This document shows positions 959-10,570 of a DNA stretch of 18,342 bases, piece by piece. The DNA comes from Candidatus Nitrotoga sp. CP45 (lineage in GTDB: Bacteria > Bacteroidota > Bacteroidia > Flavobacteriales > Flavobacteriaceae). The stretch is from positions 1-18,342 of the forward strand of contig CALQCV020000011.1 of the NCBI GenBank assembly GCA_943329165.2, in the 5' to 3' direction. The notes under the pieces were generated by a model. It had not been told where the DNA came from, ran no database searches, and saw only the letters and a program-made list of their open reading frames with translations. Position 1 is the stretch's first letter, and every line of letters begins with the position of its first letter. Position numbers and translations under genes: made by a program.

Positions 959-982
959 GCACTCAATTTGGGTGCTTTTTTT
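959..982 (+). terminator. Rho-independent terminator after sdhB
   Basis: A 6-bp stem (GCACTC at 959-964 with GGGTGC at 970-975, one G-U pair) around the loop AATTT is followed at once by seven T residues. It lies 26 bases after the sdhB stop and separates the sdh operon from the sigma-factor operon. Confidence 0.8.
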
Positions 983-1009: not shown

Positions 1010-1039
1010 GTAACAGAATTAATTATAAAAAGCGTCTAA
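1010..1039 (+). promoter_or_regulatory. Candidate ECF-sigma promoter upstream of the sigma gene (site 1)
   Basis: GTAACAGAA (1010-1018), 15 bases, then GTCTAA (1034-1039, within CGTCTAAC). GTAAC and CGTC resemble the general ECF -35 (GGAAC/GTAAC) and -10 (CGTC) elements. The 18-base gap between them is slightly longer than the usual 16-17. The same bipartite pattern with identical spacing occurs at 1617-1645 and 5881-5909. The -10-like box is 28 bases before the TTG start of the sigma gene, which suggests autoregulation. No experimental support. Confidence 0.5.
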
Positions 1040-1061: not shown

Positions 1062-1613
1062 TTGATAGAACGTTTAAAATCTAACGATAAAAAAGCATTT
1101 GAAGAATTGGTCGCATTACACAAAAATAGTGTTATCAATACTTGTTATCGTTTTTTATTAGATAAAGAAGACGCTGAAGATATTTCTCAAGAAGTTTTTA
1201 TAGAAATCTATCAGTCTATCCATTCTTTTCGCGCTGATGCCAAAATATCTACTTGGATTTATAGAATTACTGTTACTAAATGCCTAGATGAAATTAAAAA
1301 ACGCAATCGAAAGAAGAGAATCTCTTCAATTGGTAAATTACTCCGTATTGACGAAATTGTTAATTGGATTTCTGGAGGTGATCAGCCGGATGAAAAGATG
1401 AAAGAAAATGAGCAATTAAATGAAATACAAATGGTTCTAAATACTTTGCCCGAAAATCAACGTGTAGCTTTTACTTTAAGCAAAATAGATGGGTTTACTA
1501 ATCAGGAAATAGCTGAAATTATGGGCACTACAATTATTGCAGTTGAAAGTTTAATCTACAGAGCCAAAAAGAGAGTTGCTTCTGATCTTATATCAATATT
1601 AAAAAATAAATAA
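1062..1613 (+). CDS. ECF-family RNA polymerase sigma factor
   Basis: A 183-aa sigma-70 family protein of the extracytoplasmic-function type that redirects RNA polymerase to a small regulon. Region 2 spans about residues 10-82 and includes DAEDISQEVFIEIYQ (the polymerase-contact and -10 recognition helices) and STWIYRIT. Region 4 spans about 123-173, with LPENQRVAFTLSKIDGFTNQEIA and a helix-turn-helix. Region 3 is absent, as usual for ECF factors. The start is TTG at 1062: an in-frame stop at 1044-1046 leaves room for only five codons upstream, none of them ATG, and the peptide beginning here has the normal length. The gene leads a nine-gene same-strand run. The next gene encodes a small one-pass membrane protein, the usual layout of an ECF factor and its anti-sigma factor. 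Its specific signal is unknown. Confidence 0.93.
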   Translation: MIERLKSNDKKAFEELVALHKNSVINTCYRFLLDKEDAEDISQEVFIEIYQSIHSFRADAKISTWIYRITVTKCLDEIKKRNRKKRISSIGKLLRIDEIVNWISGGDQPDEKMKENEQLNEIQMVLNTLPENQRVAFTLSKIDGFTNQEIAEIMGTTIIAVESLIYRAKKRVASDLISILKNK

Positions 1614-1616
1614 TAC

Positions 1617-1645
1617 TGCCAGAAATAAAAACAGTAATCGTCTAA
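1617..1645 (+). promoter_or_regulatory. Candidate ECF-sigma promoter upstream of the anti-sigma gene (site 2)
   Basis: TGCCAGAA (1617-1624), 15 bases, then GTCTAA (1640-1645, again inside CGTCTAAC). The -10-like octamer is identical to site 1 and lies 25 bases before the ATG at 1665. The upstream half keeps only AGAA and the preceding T and C of site 1, not GTAAC. A second promoter here could produce the anti-sigma gene and downstream genes without the sigma gene. Confidence 0.4.
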
Positions 1646-1664
1646 CTAAACAATTGGAAAAGCT

Positions 1665-1955
1665 ATGGATAATTTTAATTTAGATTTTTTAGTAGAACAA
1701 AAACTCCAAGAATATGATAACTTGAAAGAGTTAAATATTTCCAATGATTGGGAAACCAATTTGAATTTAAAATTAAAACGAGGAAAGCCTGCATCAACTG
1801 TACCTCTTCAATACAGTTTAATTCTTGTTATATTGATAGCAATTAATATTAGTTTTATTATGTTTTCAATCATACAGAAACAAGAAAATGATTCAAGAAG
1901 AACTCAAGATTTAAAAGTAGTAAATAATGAAATATTGATTTCACAAAATAATTAA
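1665..1955 (+). CDS. Small single-pass membrane protein, probable anti-sigma factor (CnrY-like in size and topology)
   Basis: A 96-aa protein with about 48 soluble N-terminal residues (acidic and helical, including DFLVEQKLQEYDNLKEL), one hydrophobic segment at about 49-70, and a short polar tail. It lacks the zinc anti-sigma HxxxCxxC motif. Its position immediately after an ECF sigma gene, with a cytoplasmic helical segment joined to one membrane helix, fits an anti-sigma factor that holds the sigma factor at the inner membrane. CnrY of the Cupriavidus Ni/Co module has nearly the same length and layout. I recognise no family from sequence alone, so the role is inferred from context. Its stop is followed after 2 bases by the next start codon, so the two are translated from one message. 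Confidence 0.6.
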   Translation: MDNFNLDFLVEQKLQEYDNLKELNISNDWETNLNLKLKRGKPASTVPLQYSLILVILIAINISFIMFSIIQKQENDSRRTQDLKVVNNEILISQNN

Positions 1956-1957
1956 AC

Positions 1958-2449
1958 ATGGATATTTTTAGTCAAAAAAAGTTTTTAACTCGTATCATAC
2001 TTTTTTTAGTGATGTTGAATTTAATATCAGTTAGTTTCTTCATATGGAAAAGTATTTATAATGAGCCTCTTTTATTTCCCAAAAATGAAGATTATAAAAA
2101 TGTTTCTAGAATTCTAAAAAAAGAATTAAACCTTAGTGAAAAACAAGACTCTAAGCTAATTGAATTAAGAGAAAGTTATTATTTGAAAGAAATTGATTTA
2201 AAAAAAACTATCAAGGACTACAAAGATGAAATGAATGAAAAAATGTTCAATAAAAATACAGATGAAATAAAAATAAAACTTCTTGCTAAACAAATAGCTG
2301 ATGCTGAATATCAAATGGAGTTATTGCGTTTTGAACAAGCCAAAGAACTGAAATTAATTTGTAATGCTGAACAACAAGAAAAATTTGAAAAATTAGTGAA
2401 AGAAATCAGAGATTATTTCAGACCTGACAATCAACCAACCAGACAATAA
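1958..2449 (+). CDS. Membrane-anchored Spy/CpxP/CnrX-like periplasmic protein, candidate signal sensor
   Basis: A 163-aa protein with an uncleaved N-terminal membrane anchor (about 12-30) and a strongly charged, all-helical remainder expected in the periplasm. Two LTxxQ-like motifs, LNLSEKQ (57-63) and CNAEQQEKF (135-143), are spaced as in the Spy/CpxP/CnrX fold. Members of that fold act as stress-responsive chaperones or as metal sensors coupled to an anti-sigma factor. The protein contains no histidine at all and only one cysteine (C135), so the His-rich metal site of CnrX is absent. Any metal sensing would need Glu, Asp or Met ligands, such as the DEMNEKMF region at about 90-97. It sits 2 bases after the probable anti-sigma gene and 2 bases before the first phosphoesterase. 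Spy-like chaperone or sensor are the alternatives. Confidence 0.6.
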   Translation: MDIFSQKKFLTRIILFLVMLNLISVSFFIWKSIYNEPLLFPKNEDYKNVSRILKKELNLSEKQDSKLIELRESYYLKEIDLKKTIKDYKDEMNEKMFNKNTDEIKIKLLAKQIADAEYQMELLRFEQAKELKLICNAEQQEKFEKLVKEIRDYFRPDNQPTRQ

Positions 2450-2451
2450 AT

Positions 2452-4134
2452 ATGAAAAAAAGATTATATTTTTTATTATTGATTTCATCATTTGGTTTAG
2501 CTCAAACGAAATCTATAATTTTAGGAAGACCAACGGCAACATCAGTAACTGCTAGTATATTATTTGATCAAAATGTTCAATATTTTCTTGAATACGGAAC
2601 GCTTTCAGGAAGTTACCCTAATGTAACAACGGTTTATAATAATGCTTTAAATGTTCCGGACGAAATTGATTTAATCAATCTTTCCCCAAATTCACAATAT
2701 TATTACAGAATGCAATTCAAGTTGGTTGGAGCAACTAGTTATTCAGTTACCCAGGAATATAAATTTCATACTCAAAGAGCGCCAGGTGAAAACTTCACTT
2801 TTACTGTGGAATCAGACGAGCATTTATATGACATAAAAGGAAATCGAAGCATGTATCAAGTTACTTTAGCCAATGAGGCCGCAGACAATCCTGATTTTAT
2901 GCTTTCTTTAGGCGATATTTTTGGTGACGATCATACACCATTAACAACAACAAGTTCCGATATGGATGCTTTACATAAAGATTACAGACAGTATTTAGGT
3001 CAAATTTGTCATTCGATTCCTTTTTATGTTTGCTTAGGTAATCATGAAGGCGAAAATGATTATTTTCTTAACACTACTGGAATATATACTACTGTAGCAA
3101 ATCCTTTGCCTGCCGCGCCAAATGGTATTGGAGTATGGGGAACTTTATGGAGAAAATATTATTATCCTAATCCATTTCCTAATAGTTTTTATAGTGGAAA
3201 TACAACTGTTGAAAATTATGGTATAGGTACTCCTGAGAATTATTATGCATGGACTTGGGGTGATGCTTTATTTGTAGTTTTAGATGTTTACAGAACAGAA
3301 ATTGCGCCAGGATCAACCCCTGCAGATCCAGGTAAACCTAATAATTGGGATTGGACTTTGGGAAGAACGCAATATGATTGGATGAGAAGTGTATTAGAAA
3401 ACAGTACAGCAAATCATAAATTTGTGTTTGCCCATCATTCAAGAGGACAAGGAAGAGGTGGTGTAGTATGGGCACCCGGATATGAATGGGGAGGAATGCA
3501 AAACAACCAGTACAAATTTGACCAATACCGCCCAGGATGGGGTAAACCCATTCAAAAAGTATTTGAAGATACTGGTGTAGATGTATTCTTTCAAGGTCAC
3601 GACCATTTGTTTGCTAAAGAGCAACTCAACGGAGTAGTTTATCAGGAAGTTCCAATGCCTAGTGATATTACATATGCCATTGGATATACTGCAAATGCAA
3701 CAGCCTACACCGATCCTGCAGTCGACCCTACTTGTTCTAGGTTAGATGGTACAGGACACATCAGAGTTAATGTCACTCCAAATTGTGTCACTGTAGATTA
3801 TGTAAAAGCATATATACCAGGAACTAATGGTTCAGCAGGACATAATAATGGTGAAATAGGCTATTCGTATACTCTTGGGACTTGTACTTTGGATACAAAT
3901 CAAACTCAAACTCAAAATGACTTTCTTGCTTATCCAAATCCAGCTAACAACAATTTATATTTAAGTTTTAAAGATAGTTCAACAGAACCTTCAGGAGTAA
4001 TAAGAAATGCCTTAGGCCAAATTGTTTTAAAAGTAAATGCAACTGTAATTGATACTTCTTCTCTAGCCAATGGCTTTTATTTTTTGGAGATAGATGGGGT
4101 TACAAAATCCAAAAAAATAATTATTAAACATTAA
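2452..4134 (+). CDS. Secreted purple-acid-phosphatase-like metallophosphoesterase with T9SS sorting domain (1)
   Basis: A 560-aa protein with a signal peptide (about 1-17, cleavage near GLAQ), an N-terminal fibronectin-III-like domain (about 20-107) as in purple acid phosphatases, a metallophosphoesterase domain (about 114-400), and a type A T9SS sorting domain (about 492-560, from YPNPANN to KSKKIIIKH). The metal-binding motifs are complete: D122/H124, GD at 154-155, GNHE at 196-199, H328/H329 and GHDH at 382-385. It should hydrolyse phosphoesters with a two-metal centre outside the outer membrane or on the cell surface; the substrate cannot be read from sequence. The next gene is a full-length paralogue starting 16 bases after this stop, so the pair probably arose by tandem duplication. 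It could be a phosphodiesterase rather than a phosphatase. Confidence 0.88.
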   Translation: MKKRLYFLLLISSFGLAQTKSIILGRPTATSVTASILFDQNVQYFLEYGTLSGSYPNVTTVYNNALNVPDEIDLINLSPNSQYYYRMQFKLVGATSYSVTQEYKFHTQRAPGENFTFTVESDEHLYDIKGNRSMYQVTLANEAADNPDFMLSLGDIFGDDHTPLTTTSSDMDALHKDYRQYLGQICHSIPFYVCLGNHEGENDYFLNTTGIYTTVANPLPAAPNGIGVWGTLWRKYYYPNPFPNSFYSGNTTVENYGIGTPENYYAWTWGDALFVVLDVYRTEIAPGSTPADPGKPNNWDWTLGRTQYDWMRSVLENSTANHKFVFAHHSRGQGRGGVVWAPGYEWGGMQNNQYKFDQYRPGWGKPIQKVFEDTGVDVFFQGHDHLFAKEQLNGVVYQEVPMPSDITYAIGYTANATAYTDPAVDPTCSRLDGTGHIRVNVTPNCVTVDYVKAYIPGTNGSAGHNNGEIGYSYTLGTCTLDTNQTQTQNDFLAYPNPANNNLYLSFKDSSTEPSGVIRNALGQIVLKVNATVIDTSSLANGFYFLEIDGVTKSKKIIIKH

Positions 4135-4150
4135 TATCTATATCATAAAA

Positions 4151-5866
4151 ATGAAAAAAATTGTCAATTGTTTATTTTTTATTTTAAGTATAAATAGTTT
4201 TTCTCAAAACATTACACAAACAGAAATTGTTGGAAGACCCACCAACAATAGTATTACAATTCAAGCTTTTTTTGATGCTGATGTTGAGGTTTCAATACAA
4301 TATGGAACAATCACGGGTAATTATCCCTACAATACCCCATGGCAAAATTTTATGGCAAACGAACCAGCCGAAGTAGTGGTATCTGGGCTTTTAGCAGATA
4401 CAAAATATTATTATAAATTGAACTATAGAACTCCAGGTTCAATACAATCTACCGCAAGACCCGAACATTCATTTCACACTCAAAGACCTGCAGGAAGTAC
4501 TTTTACATTTGTAGTTCAAGCTGATCCGCACATGGATGAGCAAAGTTCAATTCCTGTTTATGACAGATGTTTGCAAAATCAATTGGAAGACAACCCAGAT
4601 TTTATGATTGATTTAGGCGATTTCTTAATGACCGATAAATTAAAAAGAACTAGTGTTACGCCAAACATTATTCCACACGATACCATTCCTTACAGATGTA
4701 AATTATTGCGTTCTAAATATGAAAGCATTTGCCACACGGTACCTTTGTTTATTGCATTAGGAAATCACGAAGGAGAGTCCGGTTGGAACTTAAATAATAC
4801 AGCGGAAAATATTGCAGTTTGGGATACCAACGAGCGTAAAAAATATTTTTTGAATCCAGCTCCAGACAGTTTTTATTCTGGAGATGCTACAAGTTATAAT
4901 TTCGTTGGACAACGAGAAAGTTATTATTCTTGGACTTGGGGCGATGCCTTATTTATAGTAATTGACCCGTATTGGTTTACCTCTCCAAAACCAACAGCAA
5001 CAACAGGTTGGCGCTGGACACTGGGAGCAGCACAGTACAATTGGTTAAAAGCAACATTAGAAAATAGTACAGCCAAATTTAAATTTGTTTTTTCCCACCA
5101 AATTGTTGGCGGAGATCCAAATGGTCGTGGTGGAGTGGAATTTGCTAATTTATATGAATGGGGTGGAAATAATTTAGACGGAACACCTGGGTTTGCTACT
5201 AATCGTCCTACATGGTATAAACCAATTAAAGATCTTTTAACTGAAAATAGAGTAACCACTTTCTTTCACGGACACGATCATTTTTTTGGAAAACAAGAAA
5301 AAGACTGTTTGGTTTATCAAGAAACTCCACAGCCAAGTCATCCCAATTATACAAGTGCAAATTACGCTACAACATATGGTTATTTAGAAGGAACAATTCT
5401 ACCTAATTCAGGACATATTCGTGTAACGGTTGGTCCAAATGGAGTTCAAACAGAATATGTGCGAACTTATTTACCTGCATCAGAAAACGCTACACGCCAC
5501 AATAAAGATGTATCTTCAAGTTATTTTATAGGCGCTTCCAATTGCTATAATTTAAGTACCAATCCTTCAATGATATGGAATGCAAATTATAACGATGAAA
5601 TTGTTTATCCCAATCCATTTTGTAGAGAAACAACTATTGAATTTTCATTAAACGAAACCGAAAAAGTTTCAATTTCAGTTTATAATGAGTTAGGGCAATT
5701 GATAAAAACGCTAGTAATGGAAAATTCTGTTAATCCAGGTAAATTTAAAGTAGTATGGGATGGTACTGATAATTCAGGTAGTGAAGCTGCAAACGGAATT
5801 TATTTATATTCTATTTCAAATCAAAATAAAGTTATAAAATCTGGAAAAATTATTTTAAAACGTTAA
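4151..5866 (+). CDS. Secreted purple-acid-phosphatase-like metallophosphoesterase with T9SS sorting domain (2)
   Basis: A 571-aa paralogue of the preceding product with the same layout: signal peptide (about 1-19), fibronectin-III-like domain (about 23-110) and phosphoesterase domain (about 118-395). The metal motifs are D125/H127, GD at 156-157, GNHE at 204-207, H316 and GHDH at 374-377. The C-terminal sorting domain (about 485-571) includes a FlgD-like stretch, VVWDGTDNSG, and ends in KSGKIILKR. It differs from the first copy at the fourth motif (SHQ here, AHH there), in a longer insert after GD, and in its sorting-domain sequence. The tail has diverged more than the catalytic core, which suggests the two enzymes have different substrates or anchoring. 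Expected location is the cell surface or the medium. It is followed by one of the operon's three long gaps. Confidence 0.87.
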   Translation: MKKIVNCLFFILSINSFSQNITQTEIVGRPTNNSITIQAFFDADVEVSIQYGTITGNYPYNTPWQNFMANEPAEVVVSGLLADTKYYYKLNYRTPGSIQSTARPEHSFHTQRPAGSTFTFVVQADPHMDEQSSIPVYDRCLQNQLEDNPDFMIDLGDFLMTDKLKRTSVTPNIIPHDTIPYRCKLLRSKYESICHTVPLFIALGNHEGESGWNLNNTAENIAVWDTNERKKYFLNPAPDSFYSGDATSYNFVGQRESYYSWTWGDALFIVIDPYWFTSPKPTATTGWRWTLGAAQYNWLKATLENSTAKFKFVFSHQIVGGDPNGRGGVEFANLYEWGGNNLDGTPGFATNRPTWYKPIKDLLTENRVTTFFHGHDHFFGKQEKDCLVYQETPQPSHPNYTSANYATTYGYLEGTILPNSGHIRVTVGPNGVQTEYVRTYLPASENATRHNKDVSSSYFIGASNCYNLSTNPSMIWNANYNDEIVYPNPFCRETTIEFSLNETEKVSISVYNELGQLIKTLVMENSVNPGKFKVVWDGTDNSGSEAANGIYLYSISNQNKVIKSGKIILKR

Positions 5867-5880
5867 TTTTTAATCTACTT

Positions 5881-5909
5881 TGCGAGAATATTCGATATAT
5901 TTTGTCTAA
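5881..5909 (+). promoter_or_regulatory. Candidate internal ECF-sigma promoter upstream of the YHYH gene (site 3)
   Basis: TGCGAGAA (5881-5888), 15 bases, then GTCTAA (5904-5909), with exactly the spacing of sites 1 and 2 and 24 bases before the ATG at 5928. It is the weakest of the three: the base before GTCTAA is T instead of C, and no GTAAC is present. It lies in the 61-base gap between the second phosphoesterase and the YHYH gene and may boost the last four genes. Confidence 0.35.
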
Positions 5910-5927
5910 AAGTAAAACAGCACAATC

Positions 5928-7571
5928 ATGAATAAAATATTCCTACTACTAATTTGCTTACTAAGCAACTTTGTTTTTTCACACACTATCAATTATGATA
6001 CTATTGTTCTAAGGCATTGGTCAATTCAAAAAGAACATAAATTTATAGACGGCACATTTATGATGTTTAAAAATGATACTGTTTTTATTGAAAAAGCAAA
6101 TAATACCATTTCGAAAGTTGCCTTCTTAGATTTGTCAAAGAACGATCAAGAATTTGTAATTAAAAAAAACAGTTGGGTTAAAAATTTAAATACAATAGCA
6201 CTAGAAAAACAAGAAGTTGGCAAAAGTATTTTTAATTATAAATTTTGGATAATTGTATCTTTACTAATTGCTTTTGGATATTATATTTACACTTTTTCAA
6301 ATAGGAAAAAATCAAAATTTTTATACCCAGTTTTGTTCTTTGGAATAGTTATGTCATTGTATAGTTTTACTAAAAAAGCACTTATAACCACCGACCCACT
6401 ATTTGTAAAATCTGCTTTTTTACCTTTTGCTTCAACGGTTAGCACTTCTTGGGACAATACTTATTTCTATGTAAATTCAAAAGGTATTCCAAATCATACG
6501 ATGATGGTTGGGATCTCTAATCATGGATGGCAACAACAAGTGCCAATTCCTCAATGTTATATTAGCTCATATATAAATCAAGCGGGACAACAAAATGCTT
6601 GGAGTATTCCTCTAAATCCTGTGATTGCAGCAACACCTGTACCTGTAAATTCTTCTCATTTTACAATTGGTGCAATAGCAATTGCAGCTAATGGCGTTGC
6701 AATTTTTAATCTAACAACTACATCTGGGCAAAATTCATATACTACTGGGCAATTAGATAATTATGGAGGTCATTGTGGAAAAGGCGATGATTATCATTAT
6801 CATACCGCTCCCTTACATTTAATTACATCTGGTCAAACTACATCAAATGTACCTCTTGCTTTCGCTTTAGATGGATTTGCAATTTATGGTAGTGTTGAGC
6901 CAAATGGTGATGCTTTAGCTGCATTAGATGCTAATCATGGTCACTATTCCAATGGTGTTTATCATTACCACGGAACCGCTAATGCTGATGGAAGTAATCC
7001 ACAGATGATAACAAATATGGTTGGTCAAGTTACTGAAGATGCTAGTTTACAAATTGTTCCTCAAGCTATGGCAAAATCAATTAGAGGTGGAAACTTAACG
7101 TCGCTTTCAGGCGCTTTAATTACATCATGTGTGCCAAATGGAACAAATAATGGTTATAATTTATCCTATAATTTAAATGGCACAAGCGGATATGCAACAA
7201 ATTACAGTTGGAACGGATCGGTATATACTTTCAATTATGTGACTCCAACTGGCACAACAATTACTCCTTATAACAACGGTTTTGCACAATGTACTGTCCC
7301 AAATTTAGGTTTTGACGAAATCATATTTTTAGAAAATGCATTTACTATTTTTCCAAATCCAACCAGCGAAGTATTAAACATTAAAATAAGAAAAGACATT
7401 AATGAAAATGATATTCAAGGGGTTTTAATTTATGATTTAAAAGGAAGTTTAGTTTCAAAAACAGCCAATTTCAAATCTAATATTGATATAAAAAATCTTT
7501 CAAAAGGATCTTACATCGTTAAAATTGAATTTTTAAATTACCAAATATCTAAAAAAATAATTGTGGAATAA
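5928..7571 (+). CDS. YHYH-domain protein with SHD1-like N-terminus, two membrane segments and T9SS sorting domain
   Basis: A 547-aa multi-domain protein. In order: signal peptide (about 1-18); a small domain (about 29-77) resembling SHD1/Sla1 homology domain 1, with GTFMMFKNDTVFIEK and LSKNDQEFV; two hydrophobic segments (about 106-123 and 131-148); a YHYH domain (about 165-400) with the motif twice, YHYH at 289-292 and 345-348, plus GGHCGKGDD and NHGHY; and a T9SS sorting domain (about 475-547, FPNPTSEV to ISKKIIVE). YHYH domains are His-rich and may bind metal, but no reaction is established. Membrane segments in a T9SS cargo are unusual. The ATG at 5928 begins a good signal peptide. The HupE/UreJ-like gene three genes downstream supports a shared role. 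Confidence 0.82.
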   Translation: MNKIFLLLICLLSNFVFSHTINYDTIVLRHWSIQKEHKFIDGTFMMFKNDTVFIEKANNTISKVAFLDLSKNDQEFVIKKNSWVKNLNTIALEKQEVGKSIFNYKFWIIVSLLIAFGYYIYTFSNRKKSKFLYPVLFFGIVMSLYSFTKKALITTDPLFVKSAFLPFASTVSTSWDNTYFYVNSKGIPNHTMMVGISNHGWQQQVPIPQCYISSYINQAGQQNAWSIPLNPVIAATPVPVNSSHFTIGAIAIAANGVAIFNLTTTSGQNSYTTGQLDNYGGHCGKGDDYHYHTAPLHLITSGQTTSNVPLAFALDGFAIYGSVEPNGDALAALDANHGHYSNGVYHYHGTANADGSNPQMITNMVGQVTEDASLQIVPQAMAKSIRGGNLTSLSGALITSCVPNGTNNGYNLSYNLNGTSGYATNYSWNGSVYTFNYVTPTGTTITPYNNGFAQCTVPNLGFDEIIFLENAFTIFPNPTSEVLNIKIRKDINENDIQGVLIYDLKGSLVSKTANFKSNIDIKNLSKGSYIVKIEFLNYQISKKIIVE

Positions 7572-7590
7572 TACTTCTATTTTCATTCGT

Positions 7591-8817
7591 ATGTTAAAGC
7601 TCACTAGTTTTTTATTATTATTTCCAATTTTTTCAAGTGCTCAATACCTTGGGACAGCTTCAGTCACTCAAGGATTAGCAACAACAACTGTATCCAATTT
7701 ATATACTTGTTCTGGAGGAAGAATTGCTGCTTTAGGAACTATAACTGCAACTAATAATTCGGTTTGGACAGTTCCGGCAGTTACTAATTATACAAATGCT
7801 AATTTTCCATTTGCCTCTGATTTACATAACACTTGTAATGGCCATAATTATGCTAATGATGCAGCAGCATTAGCAGCATTAAATGGTTCAGACATTGTTA
7901 CTGTTGATACTAATGGAGAAATAATAACAGCTTATATTTTTGCCGATAATTATTTTGAATTATACATTAATGGTGTTTCGGTTGGCAAAGACAATGTCCC
8001 CTTTACACAATTCAATTCAAATATTGTCAGATTTAAAGTAAATCGCCCTTTTACAATTGCAATGCTATTAGTAGATTGGGAAGAACGATTAGGTGTCGGA
8101 GGAGAAACCAATGGAGGATTTACTTACCATTGTGGAGATGGCGGGATGGTAGCTGTTTTTAAAGACTCAAACAATTCAATAATTGCTAAAACAGGTTCCG
8201 ATTGGAAAGCACAAACATTTTATACATCTCCCATTATGGACTTAACTTGTCCAACTGAAAATGGTTCATTACGCTTATCTGGAAATTGTAGTACTGCTGA
8301 CAGCAATTCGGGTAATAATTATTATGGCTTACATTGGGCACGACCTGCAAATTGGACTCTAGCCACATTTGATGATAGTACTTGGCCTGCCGCCAGTCTC
8401 TATGCGAATGCTGCAATAGGCGTTGACAACAAACCTGCTTATACCAATTTCACCAATATTTTTGATAATCCAACAAATGTCGCACAGTTTGTTTGGAGTA
8501 CTAATGTTATTTTGGATAATGAGGTTATCGTGAGAAAAACAGTTCTTTCAAATTTATCTGTGAATCATAATGATTCGAAAATCAAACATATCAATATATA
8601 TCCAAATCCTACAAAAAGTGAATTTCATTTAGAGGTTGATCCATCGATAAAAAATGAAATTCAATCTGTAAAAATTTATAATCTATTGGGTGAATTAGTA
8701 TTCAGTACCCATCAGTATTTGGAAATAATTTCAACCTCAAATCTTTCCTCTGGAATGTATATCATAAAAGTTAATCTTCCAGAATTTGAAATTTCGAAAA
8801 AATTAATAATCGAATAA
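7591..8817 (+). CDS. Secreted protein of unknown function with T9SS sorting domain
   Basis: A 408-aa protein with a signal peptide (about 1-17, SSAQ), a large beta-rich region (about 20-320), and a type A sorting domain (about 335-408, YPNPTKSEFH to ISKKLIIE). I do not recognise a family. Visible features are FADNYFELYINGVSVGKDN (118-136), typical of jelly-roll carbohydrate- or ligand-binding folds; paired cysteines (C40/C82, C181, C220, C233) that could form disulfides; and an aromatic stretch around WARPANWTLATFDDSTW (249-265), whose ATFDDSTW also suggests a galactose-binding-like module. The frame is open from TTG at 7561, overlapping the preceding gene, but ATG at 7591 gives a standard signal peptide. 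The next gene starts 1 base after the stop. It is likely a surface-exposed binding protein of the same system. Confidence 0.75.
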   Translation: MLKLTSFLLLFPIFSSAQYLGTASVTQGLATTTVSNLYTCSGGRIAALGTITATNNSVWTVPAVTNYTNANFPFASDLHNTCNGHNYANDAAALAALNGSDIVTVDTNGEIITAYIFADNYFELYINGVSVGKDNVPFTQFNSNIVRFKVNRPFTIAMLLVDWEERLGVGGETNGGFTYHCGDGGMVAVFKDSNNSIIAKTGSDWKAQTFYTSPIMDLTCPTENGSLRLSGNCSTADSNSGNNYYGLHWARPANWTLATFDDSTWPAASLYANAAIGVDNKPAYTNFTNIFDNPTNVAQFVWSTNVILDNEVIVRKTVLSNLSVNHNDSKIKHINIYPNPTKSEFHLEVDPSIKNEIQSVKIYNLLGELVFSTHQYLEIISTSNLSSGMYIIKVNLPEFEISKKLIIE

Positions 8818-8818
8818 A

Positions 8819-10006
8819 ATGAAAAAATTAATTTTTCTGTTACTGACTACTTTTTCTTTTGCTCAAAGTGTCACCAAAACTATAAACCTACTTCCAGATA
8901 CAGGACAAAATAGCAGTTATACCGTAACTGTTGGAGAAGATAATGATTATAACATTAATGTTCCATCTTATACCGATAATGGAAACGGAACTATAACAGA
9001 CAATGTAACAGGGTTGATGTGGCAAAAAGTGGATGGTGGTGAAATGACCTTTGAAAATGCTATTTCATATTGCGACAATTTAGTTTTTGCTGGCTACTCG
9101 GATTGGAGATTGCCAACGCCACTAGAGTCGTTTAGCATAATGAATCTTCAAAATACAAACCCAGCATTAAATACCACCTATTTCAGTTCGCCAACTACTC
9201 CAGGTGCCGATTATTGGTGGACAAGCACAGTACAGTTTGGCGATGCTACTAAAGTTTGGTGTACCAATGCCGGTGGTGGAATAGGCAATAAACCAAAAGC
9301 AGAAACAGTAAGCGCCGGTGGTACTTTAAAATACAATGCAAGAGCCGTGCGAACGGTTACGACTCCAACTACTGTTACAAATCATTTTACTGATAATGGT
9401 GACGGTACAATTACCGATAATTTGACTCAGTTAGTATGGCAAAAAATCCCGAATGCTAATCTAGTAACTTGGGAAGAAGCCATAACTTATGCTGAAGGTC
9501 TTACTCTTGCAAATGCTTTAGATTGGAGATTGCCAAATATTAAAGAATTACAGTCAATTACTAATGAATTGACCACAAATCCTTCTGTTTTTACGTCTTA
9601 TTTTTCAAATTTAGGAGTTCATAATTATTGGTCTTCCACCACTTTAAAACCTAATATACAAAATCCATCTAGTGCATGGTATTGGAGCACTCAATATGGC
9701 ATTACAGCCTATGGTAGTAAAACGAGTGCTAATTATGTATTATGTGTTCGTGGAATTCCACAGTTGGGTATTTCGCAATTTGAAAATAAAAATGTCTTGA
9801 AAGTTTTTCCTAATCCTTTTTCAGCCAAAATTTCTTTTGAAAATAAAACCGGTAATGAGTATTATGAATTGTATGACATTCAAGGAAAACTATTTTTTTC
9901 AGGTAAAAACATTGATAAACAAGATTTTTCCAATTTAACAAAAGGTACTTATTTTTTGAAAGTGATAGACCACACTATTTCAAATTTCAAACTAATCAAG
10001 GAATAA
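8819..10006 (+). CDS. Secreted tandem Lcl (DUF1566) domain protein with T9SS sorting domain
   Basis: A 395-aa protein with a signal peptide (about 1-16), two tandem Lcl/DUF1566 domains (about 51-180 and 190-312), and a sorting domain (about 326-395, FPNPFSAK to NFKLIKE). Each Lcl copy shows the family hallmarks: TDNGNGTITDNVTGLMWQK and SDWRLPTPLE in the first, TDNGDGTITDNLTQLVWQK and LDWRLPNIKEL in the second, each followed by YWWTST or YWSSTT and ending in RAVR or CVRG. The fold was first noted in the Legionella collagen-like adhesin; it is a ligand-binding C-type-lectin-like domain without assigned catalysis. The start codon follows the previous stop by one base and the HupE-like gene abuts its end, so translation is probably coupled. 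It may be a surface adhesin or binding subunit of the operon's secreted set. Confidence 0.85.
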   Translation: MKKLIFLLLTTFSFAQSVTKTINLLPDTGQNSSYTVTVGEDNDYNINVPSYTDNGNGTITDNVTGLMWQKVDGGEMTFENAISYCDNLVFAGYSDWRLPTPLESFSIMNLQNTNPALNTTYFSSPTTPGADYWWTSTVQFGDATKVWCTNAGGGIGNKPKAETVSAGGTLKYNARAVRTVTTPTTVTNHFTDNGDGTITDNLTQLVWQKIPNANLVTWEEAITYAEGLTLANALDWRLPNIKELQSITNELTTNPSVFTSYFSNLGVHNYWSSTTLKPNIQNPSSAWYWSTQYGITAYGSKTSANYVLCVRGIPQLGISQFENKNVLKVFPNPFSAKISFENKTGNEYYELYDIQGKLFFSGKNIDKQDFSNLTKGTYFLKVIDHTISNFKLIKE

Positions 10007-10570
10007 TTGTTGGAAACTCTTATCCTTTATCTAAAACTAGGATATACCCATGTTATTCCGCTGGGTTTTGATCACATTCTTTTTATCCTTACACTCTTTT
10101 TTCTTAACTCCAAATTAAAAACTGTAGTCCTCCAATGTTCTGTTTTTACCTTGGCGCACAGTCTTACTTTGGGTTTAGTAGCTTTCGGATTATTTATGCC
10201 CAATGTTAAAATAATAGAAGTTTTAATTGCCTTATCTATACTTTTTACAGCGGTGGAAAACATCGTAACCAATACTATAAATCCTTTTCGTTTACTGATT
10301 GTTTTTGCTTTTGGATTAGTTCATGGTATGGGCTTTGCCAATGCGCTACTGGAAACTGGATTGCCAAAAGAACAGTTTATATCGTCTCTGCTGTCCTTTA
10401 ATTTTGGTGTAGAACTTGGACAATTAGTCGTAATTGTTTCAGCTTATTTTTTAGTTAGTAAATGGTTTAGCAATAAAGTTTGGTATAAAGAACGAATTAT
10501 TTATCCAATTTCAGTAATTATTGGCTGCGTAGCGTTTTATTGGACCATAGAAAGGGTATTATCAATCTAA
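10007..10570 (+). CDS. HupE/UreJ-like integral membrane protein
   Basis: A 187-aa polytopic membrane protein with about six hydrophobic segments. Conserved polar residues lie in or next to the helices: GFDHILFI (20-27, D22/H23), FTLAHSLTL (47-55, H51), AVENIV (E84) and FGLVHGMGFA (102-111, H106), then FNFGVELGQL. These match the HupE/UreJ_2 branch. Classical HupE/UreJ are proposed Ni/Co permeases; the role of this short branch is not settled, and the buried His/Asp/Glu could bind metal. There is no ATG near the 5' end. TTG at 10007 directly abuts the preceding TAA, and TTG at 10010 is an equally possible start, so translation must be coupled to the upstream gene. It is the last gene of the operon, and I see no clear terminator after it. 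Confidence 0.8.
   Translation: MLETLILYLKLGYTHVIPLGFDHILFILTLFFLNSKLKTVVLQCSVFTLAHSLTLGLVAFGLFMPNVKIIEVLIALSILFTAVENIVTNTINPFRLLIVFAFGLVHGMGFANALLETGLPKEQFISSLLSFNFGVELGQLVVIVSAYFLVSKWFSNKVWYKERIIYPISVIIGCVAFYWTIERVLSI

What the first reader, a model, noticed from the sequence alone, without database searches (positions are those of the whole stretch)
1062..10570. Nine-gene ECF-sigma operon exporting two metallophosphoesterases, a YHYH protein and partners by T9SS
Seen: nine same-strand genes with gaps of 0-61 bases, led by an ECF sigma factor and two membrane proteins, then five consecutive proteins with signal peptides and C-terminal T9SS sorting domains, ending in a HupE/UreJ-like membrane protein. 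Known: HupE/UreJ relatives are linked to Ni/Co transport, YHYH domains are His-rich, and the phosphoesterases need two metals. Inference: a stress- or metal-responsive surface system combining phosphoester hydrolysis, ligand binding and a membrane component. I know of no described system with this set.
Basis: partly seen in the sequence, partly recalled or inferred. Interest (0 to 1): 0.7.

Follow-up and report, generated by a model that had tools for sequence, protein, structure and literature searches.

The report
Split metal-fishing surface operon in Flavobacterium
Nine adjacent genes in a Flavobacterium genome, several of which recur together in other bacteria from fresh water and the sea, likely form a system that catches a scarce metal such as copper or nickel at the cell envelope, built around an uncharacterised protein predicted to begin with a metal-gripping histidine; no metal has been measured.

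Summary
In detail: nine + strand genes at 1062-10570, gaps 0-61 bases, five with type IX sorting tails over Pfam's cut-off. The block is conserved. In the genus set the 408-aa gene is in 9 of 249 genomes and the YHYH gene in 21; all nine lie beside a YHYH gene. Across these 21 YHYH loci the Lcl gene follows in 19 and HupE/UreJ-2 in 14; the full sigma/anti-sigma/sensor trio is in 2, so it is optional. New here: the YHYH protein puts a histidine right after its signal peptide (52 of 55 by a strict rule, against 2-6% for three neighbouring gene families), the hallmark of published metal-binding 'anglerases', which are fused to HupE/UreJ-2; here the two are separate genes. MbnP, MauG-like or multicopper oxidase genes join the block in some relatives. 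Against: the sensor has no histidine, HupE is missing from 45 of 62 testable 408-aa loci, the N-domain is SHD1-like, not an Ang fold. I favour envelope capture of copper or nickel (0.45); a surface-glycan system is the main rival. Type IX export of YHYH needs release from a membrane hairpin; a lipobox replaces the tail in tail-less relatives.

The parts
959..975 (+). terminator-like stem before the operon, possible transcription boundary
   Evidence: pattern match only; numbers near chance
1010..1038 (+). candidate ECF-type promoter GTAAC-N18-CGTCTA upstream of the sigma gene
   Evidence: 2 forward hits in the genome, backward control 3: not enriched; a similar site lies before the sigma gene of L043, none by that pattern before the other sigma genes listed
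1062..1613 (+). ECF sigma factor
   Evidence: Sigma70_r2 61.2 and Sigma70_r4_2 63.8 bits
1665..1955 (+). single-TM protein, likely anti-sigma factor
   Evidence: position, one hydrophobic segment 52-70, homologues in the same place in L043, L058, L061, L063, L064 and L175; no Pfam family over cut-off
1958..2449 (+). single-TM Spy/CpxP-like protein, likely sensor partner
   Evidence: LTXXQ 23.4 bits (cut-off 24.3); profile A4 finds Spy E 3e-4, CnrX E 1; no His
2452..4134 (+). calcineurin-like metallophosphoesterase 1 with type IX tail (about 3931-4125)
   Evidence: motifs DxH, GD, GNHE, GHDH
4151..5866 (+). calcineurin-like metallophosphoesterase 2 with type IX tail (about 5603-5854)
   Evidence: motifs DxH, GD, GNHE, GHDH
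5928..7571 (+). YHYH protein: signal peptide, SHD1-like N-domain with leading His, membrane hairpin, YHYH domain, type IX tail (about 7347-7565)
5982..5984 (+). codon of the predicted mature N-terminal histidine (residue 19)
   Evidence: cleavage itself is predicted
6228..6368 (+). two hydrophobic segments (residues 101-117, 131-147) with a basic loop between them
6600..6896 (+). YHYH Pfam match; conserved H190, H282, D288, H290, H292, D315, H348 lie in and around it
   Evidence: model pLDDT 92.2
7591..8817 (+). P408: beta-rich protein with type IX tail (about 8596-8811); core resembles lectin / GH78 carbohydrate-binding domains at a modest score
8819..10006 (+). Lcl protein, two Lcl_C stretches, type IX tail (about 9803-9985)
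10007..10570 (+). stand-alone HupE/UreJ-2 membrane protein, predicted metal permease
   Evidence: H15, D22, H23, H51, H106, E136 invariant in all 21 aligned sequences, 15 from this block and 6 others

Best explanation
This is a conserved, patchily distributed gene block that likely captures a transition metal (copper or nickel) at the cell envelope: its central YHYH protein is predicted to expose a chelating histidine as its first mature residue and would pass the metal to the HupE/UreJ-2 membrane protein encoded last. Shown: gene content, recurrence of the block, the histidine placed right after the leader, the conserved His/Asp sets of HupE/UreJ-2 and of the YHYH domain, type IX tails on five proteins. 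Predicted: the sigma / anti-sigma / Spy-like trio switches the operon on in response to envelope conditions; signal peptidase frees the amino group of the histidine so that it can chelate together with its side chain; the N-domain faces the periplasm, held by the first membrane segment, while the YHYH part either stays on the hairpin or is cut off after the second segment and sent to the surface; the metallophosphoesterases, the lectin-like P408 and Lcl act outside the outer membrane, where they may release or hold the metal or its ligand. Untested: which metal, direction of flow, any transport, and the cut.
For: (1) His after the leader: every YHYH+N protein with an intact start by the loose rule; 52 of 55 by a strict rule, against MPE 3 of 53, P408 2 of 80, LCL 2 of 43, sulfatase 2 of 18 and 29 of 379 unlabelled ORFs with a hydrophobic start. 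In an environmental set 53 of 65 pass; 7 more show the same S-H junction but an extra His in the leader, 5 lack a full leader. In the genus set all 20 loci with an intact start have it (window plus 19 of 20 fetched; L176 is truncated), 19 of them after a small residue. [quoted passage not shown] (3) Of nine other HupE/UreJ-2 loci that I picked and fetched from the family, the six with an N-terminal extension all have His after the leader (in L142 the extension is only about 20 residues); the three short ones have no such domain. (4) Metal residues of the block's HupE kept. (5) Copper-linked genes near P408 in relatives: MbnP and/or MauG-like genes in 4 of 81 loci, multicopper oxidase in 4, redoxin in 12 (Pfam-tested in L050 and L053, the rest by clustering or core match); multicopper oxidase and redoxin directly before the sigma gene in L175, and both beside two further YHYH genes on contig C246 of the window's own genome. 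(6) Other YHYH proteins neighbour DUF6702-like proteins with His after the leader in L072 and L099 (17.9 and 22.8 bits, below the cut-off of 24); DUF6702 binds Ni, Co and Cu (PMC12537917, passage).
Against: HupE/UreJ-2 is near P408 in only 17 of 62 testable loci, and in none of the 14 loci with LytS/LytTR genes, the marine form with PEBP and often MacAB-TolC. The third gene lacks histidines, so a CnrX-type metal site is absent. The N-domain is SHD1-like (18 of 27 members; SLA1 SHD1 2hbp E 0.0017), not the Ig-like Ang fold. L090 and L105 have tyrosine, not histidine, at the junction, and in L175 the residue before the histidine is proline. In L089 and L090 the pair sits behind FecR and TonB-receptor genes, which can serve glycan as well as metal-chelate uptake. 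YHYH has been predicted to be a metal-dependent hydrolase in phage tails (PMC7824862, passage). P408 and Lcl point to glycans. No metal measured.
Confidence: 0.45

Rival explanations
1. Surface glycan system: YHYH is a metal-dependent hydrolase, P408 and Lcl are lectins that hold a polysaccharide, and phosphoesterases and sulfatase trim phosphate and sulfate esters from it; the histidines serve catalysis, not metal uptake.
Confidence: 0.25
2. Phosphate and sulfate scavenging: the two phosphoesterases and the sulfatase free phosphate or sulfate outside the cell, the rest are helpers.
For: Two metallophosphoesterases with intact motifs, a sulfatase between Lcl and HupE in relatives.
Against: Phosphoesterases are near P408 in only 20 of 60 testable loci and next to YHYH in 14 of 21 genus loci, so they are accessories. 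No search for phosphate transporters was made.
Confidence: 0.12
3. Envelope-stress operon: the Spy/CpxP-like protein and sigma factor answer to damaged envelope and the surface proteins are adhesins and repair enzymes without a metal role.
For: Third gene profile matches Spy (E 3e-4) better than CnrX (E 1); thioredoxin-like and redoxin genes in some loci.
Against: The sigma trio is missing from most loci while YHYH, P408 and Lcl stay together; the conserved His after the leader and HupE/UreJ-2 are unexplained.
Confidence: 0.13

Closest known systems
Anglerases Ang-1/Ang-2 fused to HupE/UreJ-2 (PMC12537917, section 8 read)
   Same: histidine directly after the signal peptide, HupE/UreJ-2 permease, metallophosphatase neighbours (Ang-2)
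   Different: here the histidine protein and the permease are separate genes; N-domain is SHD1-like instead of an Ig-like beta-sandwich and is followed by a membrane hairpin and a YHYH domain
CnrYXH of Cupriavidus (recalled; search listing only)
   Same: ECF sigma, short single-TM anti-sigma, single-TM periplasmic helical sensor encoded together
   Different: gene order sigma first, sensor closer to Spy, no histidine ligands, and it leads secreted proteins instead of an efflux pump
MbnP/MbnH pairs (PMC3621798, passages)
   Same: MbnP and MauG-like genes stand together upstream in L050, L053 and L108 (Pfam-tested in the first two)
   Different: the window operon has neither
YHYH domain proteins of jumbo phages and pelagimyophages (PMC7824862, PMC7029224, passages)
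   Same: conserved His/Asp set, company of lectin-like domains
   Different: cellular, with a His1 N-domain and membrane segments

Membership tests
HupE/UreJ-2 (PF13795) | profile over curated cut-off | tested here: met
   144.7 bits against 24.5
HupE/UreJ-2 (PF13795) | conserved metal residues in the membrane helices | tested here: met
   H15, D22, H23, H51, H106, E136 invariant in 21 of 21 aligned; their role in nickel transport is recalled
HupE/UreJ-2 (PF13795) | metal transport | not testable with these tools
   needs uptake assay
Anglerase (Ang + HupE/UreJ-2) | histidine immediately after the signal peptide | tested here: met
   YHYH protein, (cleavage predicted from sequence only)
Anglerase (Ang + HupE/UreJ-2) | Ang domain fused to HupE/UreJ-2 in one protein | tested here: not met
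   operon HupE has 187 aa and no N-terminal domain
Anglerase (Ang + HupE/UreJ-2) | Ig-like beta-sandwich Ang domain | tested here: inconclusive
   N-domain profile finds SLA1 SHD1 (2hbp E 0.0017) and designed Cake proteins at lower E; no Ang chain listed up to E 2; N-domain fold was not predicted
Anglerase (Ang + HupE/UreJ-2) | Cu2+/Ni2+ binding | not testable with these tools
   needs purified protein
YHYH (PF14240) | profile over cut-off | tested here: met
   46.4 bits against 25
YHYH (PF14240) | conserved His triad and Asp | tested here: met
   H38, H130, D136, H138, H140, D163, H196 of A3 invariant in 42 sequences
CnrYXH-type regulator | ECF sigma + single-TM anti-sigma + single-TM sensor gene set | tested here: met
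   same trio in five of the other 80 P408 loci by sequence match (L043, L058, L061, L063, L064) and in L175
CnrYXH-type regulator | CnrX metal-ligand histidines in the sensor | tested here: not met
   no His in window ORF3
CnrYXH-type regulator | sensor sequence relation to CnrX | tested here: inconclusive
   E 1 to 1.8 for CnrX and NccX chains, 3e-4 for Spy
Type IX secretion substrate | C-terminal sorting domain | tested here: met
   five of five over cut-off
Type IX secretion substrate | soluble periplasmic intermediate without membrane helices (YHYH protein) | tested here: inconclusive
   two internal hydrophobic segments; release by a cut after the second is possible. The other four show none, but at that threshold even their leaders are not flagged
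Calcineurin-like metallophosphoesterase (PF00149) | profile and metal motifs | tested here: met
   both proteins
CBM67 / GH78 N-domain (PF08531) for P408 | profile over cut-off | tested here: not met
   17.8 bits against 25 in the L082 homologue; not listed for the window protein
CBM67 / GH78 N-domain (PF08531) for P408 | shared fold | tested here: inconclusive

The most novel reading that the evidence does not exclude
A two-piece anglerase island: a membrane-held His1-SHD1-YHYH protein fishes copper or nickel and feeds a separate HupE/UreJ-2 permease, while type IX-displayed phosphoesterases, a lectin-like P408 and Lcl mobilise the metal at the cell surface; YHYH would be a new metal-binding fold, and its YHYH half would be cut free and sent to the surface either as a lipoprotein or by type IX secretion. 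The island has spread between Bacteroidota and Psychrobacter in different regulatory dress.
Probability: 0.3. Interest if true: 0.75.

Novelty: new variant of a known kind. Interest (0 to 1): 0.55.

Why it matters
YHYH proteins are widespread and, as far as the held library shows, uncharacterised: a whole-word full-text search for YHYH gave 26 papers; judged by title only two concern the domain, both on phages, and I read their YHYH passages. If the histidine after the leader binds metal, it gives YHYH a testable role, extends the 2025 anglerase idea to a two-gene form in Bacteroidota, and links type IX surface proteins to metal supply. HupE, UreJ and Flavobacteri- occur together in 0 papers of that library, and 'anglerase' in 1.

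Tried and rejected
Type IX tail as a trap: the first family search with the full 408-aa protein matched 239 of 299 genomes, mostly through the sorting tail; I then used the core only and read 7 genomes as true carriers (an eighth, G212, has a short partial match). First clustering of neighbours chained through the tail and was replaced by core matches. PDB sequence match for MPE1 and Lcl: none up to E 0.1; MPE2, HupE and sigma were not searched there. P408 and YHYH: none up to E 1. A genome-wide ECF promoter motif: 2 forward hits against 3 in the backward control, so not claimed. CnrX-type metal sensing by ORF3: no histidines, dropped. Alignment A6 was cut to start at the histidine, so its His column is no evidence. 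The distance correlations (P408-YHYH r 0.64, P408-HUP 0.90; 0 of 2000 permutations reached them) do not separate co-transfer from common descent. A paper search for ECF sigma, Bacteroidetes, heavy metal, CpxP and anti-sigma together gave nothing.

Full report
Check of the finding. One search gives the nine ORFs at the stated places, another the gaps (51, 2, 2, 16, 61, 19, 1, 0), another the Pfam families. All five secreted proteins carry the type IX sorting tail over Pfam's cut-off, and a SprA match is in the genome. The window is a whole contig (C11) of a 2.0 Mb, 77% complete assembly of 282 contigs. One genome of its genus set, G635, has a contig of the same length as that of L040, titled Flavobacterium sp., and protein relatives with names are mostly Flavobacterium.

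Is the block conserved? An alignment of seven P408 cores (A1) found 354 confirmed relatives among 465 pattern matches in one genome per species; the best 80 were kept, so the sample is biased to near relatives. I added the window: 81 loci. Of 72 loci with at least 3 kb upstream, the gene directly before P408 on the same strand is a YHYH gene in 48, a PEBP gene in 10 (in all ten a YHYH gene precedes it), HupE in 1, none of these in 13. Of 66 with at least 3.5 kb downstream, the next gene is Lcl in 32 and LytTR in 13. Counting same-strand genes from 9 kb before to 6 kb after P408, HupE is present in 17 of 62 testable loci, a phosphoesterase in 20 of 60, a sigma gene in 10 of 53. Three arrangements stand out: a freshwater one, MPE MPE YHYH P408 Lcl [sulfatase] HupE, with or without the sigma trio; a marine Flavobacteriaceae one, LytS YHYH PEBP P408 LytTR, often behind MacAB-TolC; and one in L089, L090 and L105 behind a different sigma gene, with FecR and TonB-receptor genes (Pfam-tested in L089 and L090; L105 by layout). 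Psychrobacter isolates carry YHYH P408 (L102-L104, L106, L112; P408 62-63% identical), so the pair crosses phyla.

A test in defined genome sets. In the genus set P408 is in 9 of 249 genomes, YHYH of this subfamily in 21 of 249; all nine P408 genomes are among the 21 and the two genes lie side by side (Fisher p 3e-11, no correction for relatedness). I mapped the window and all 20 others: Lcl follows YHYH or P408 in 19 of 21 (not L173, L174), HupE is downstream in 14, a phosphoesterase is adjacent in 14, a CPX-like gene in 4, the full sigma trio in 2 (window, L175); L161 and L168 have the CPX-like gene with no sigma gene beside it. Seven of the eight fetched P408 loci of this set have the contig lengths of records among L034-L045, so the two samples overlap. 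In the family set P408 cores occur in 7 of 299, plus a short partial match in G212, and strong YHYH matches in 8 of 299; four genomes have both, adjacent or with PEBP between. Exceptions: YHYH alone (G090, G281), YHYH fused to PEBP-like sequence (G211, G020), P408 alone and shortened (G287) or among repeated transposase-like genes (G168), P408 beside a different YHYH type (G184). In a class-wide sample P408 is in 3 of 149 including the window's genome. So YHYH-Lcl-HupE is the firmer core in Flavobacterium, P408-YHYH the core across phyla, and sigma trio, phosphoesterases and sulfatase are accessories.

Link to metals. PMC12537917 (outline, passages, section 8 read) describes His1 domains fused to HupE/UreJ-2 that bind copper, with metallophosphatase neighbours for Ang-2. 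In the window's family PF13795 is in 273 of 299 genomes, so the family itself is common. Of nine other loci that I picked and fetched, the six with an N-terminal extension all put His after the leader and the three short ones have no such domain. The operon's HupE is short, yet its neighbour YHYH has the histidine. In L050 and L053 MbnP, MauG-like peroxidase and multicopper oxidase genes (Pfam-tested) stand upstream on the same strand; L175 in the genus set has multicopper oxidase and redoxin right before the sigma gene; the window's own genome has multicopper oxidase, redoxin and two more YHYH genes on a 3.6 kb contig. Second YHYH genes in L072 and L099 neighbour DUF6702-like proteins with His after the leader; DUF6702 is a reported Ni/Co/Cu binder (passage). 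Whether these genes are co-regulated is not known.

Regulation. Sigma, anti-sigma-like and Spy/CpxP-like genes recur together in L043, L058, L061, L063, L064 and L175, and by position in L067 and L110. The layout resembles CnrYXH (recalled), but ORF3 has no histidine and its profile is nearer Spy. A GTAAC-N18-CGTCTA site ends 23 bases before the sigma start and a similar one lies in L043, but not before the other sigma genes listed; genome-wide the pattern is not enriched.

Verdict.

Noticed in passing
L102, L103, L104, L106, L112: Psychrobacter isolates (Gammaproteobacteria) carry YHYH and P408 at 62-63% P408 identity, which suggests transfer between phyla.
   Followed up: partly
L128 (9196-11208), L129 (9047-11182): Single ORFs that join the His-led N-domain, YHYH and a PEBP-like domain; elsewhere YHYH and PEBP are neighbouring genes.
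   Followed up: partly
L147 1399-1989: The window genome's second HupE/UreJ-2 (contig C7) reads N-D where others have D-H in the first helix, so it may have lost the metal site.
   Followed up: no
L131: P408 of G168 sits among several near-identical transposase-like gene pairs.
   Followed up: no
window 5928-7571 and the YHYH proteins of L034-L113: A lipobox-like Cys after the second membrane segment and a long C-terminal part exclude each other in 62 of 63 YHYH proteins: two possible surface routes for one domain.
   Followed up: partly
L134 (G000:C246): Own genome holds multicopper oxidase, redoxin and two YHYH genes on a 3572-base contig, the genes that precede the block in some relatives.
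   Followed up: yes
L072 17487-18779, L099 6862-7497, L173 11001-11540: DUF6702-like proteins beside YHYH genes (Pfam-tested in L072 and L099 only, below cut-off; L072 18174-18779 and L173 judged by eye).
   Followed up: partly
L089 3418-10894, L090 4581-10900: YHYH or its N-domain with P408 behind sigma, FecR and TonB-receptor genes.
   Followed up: partly
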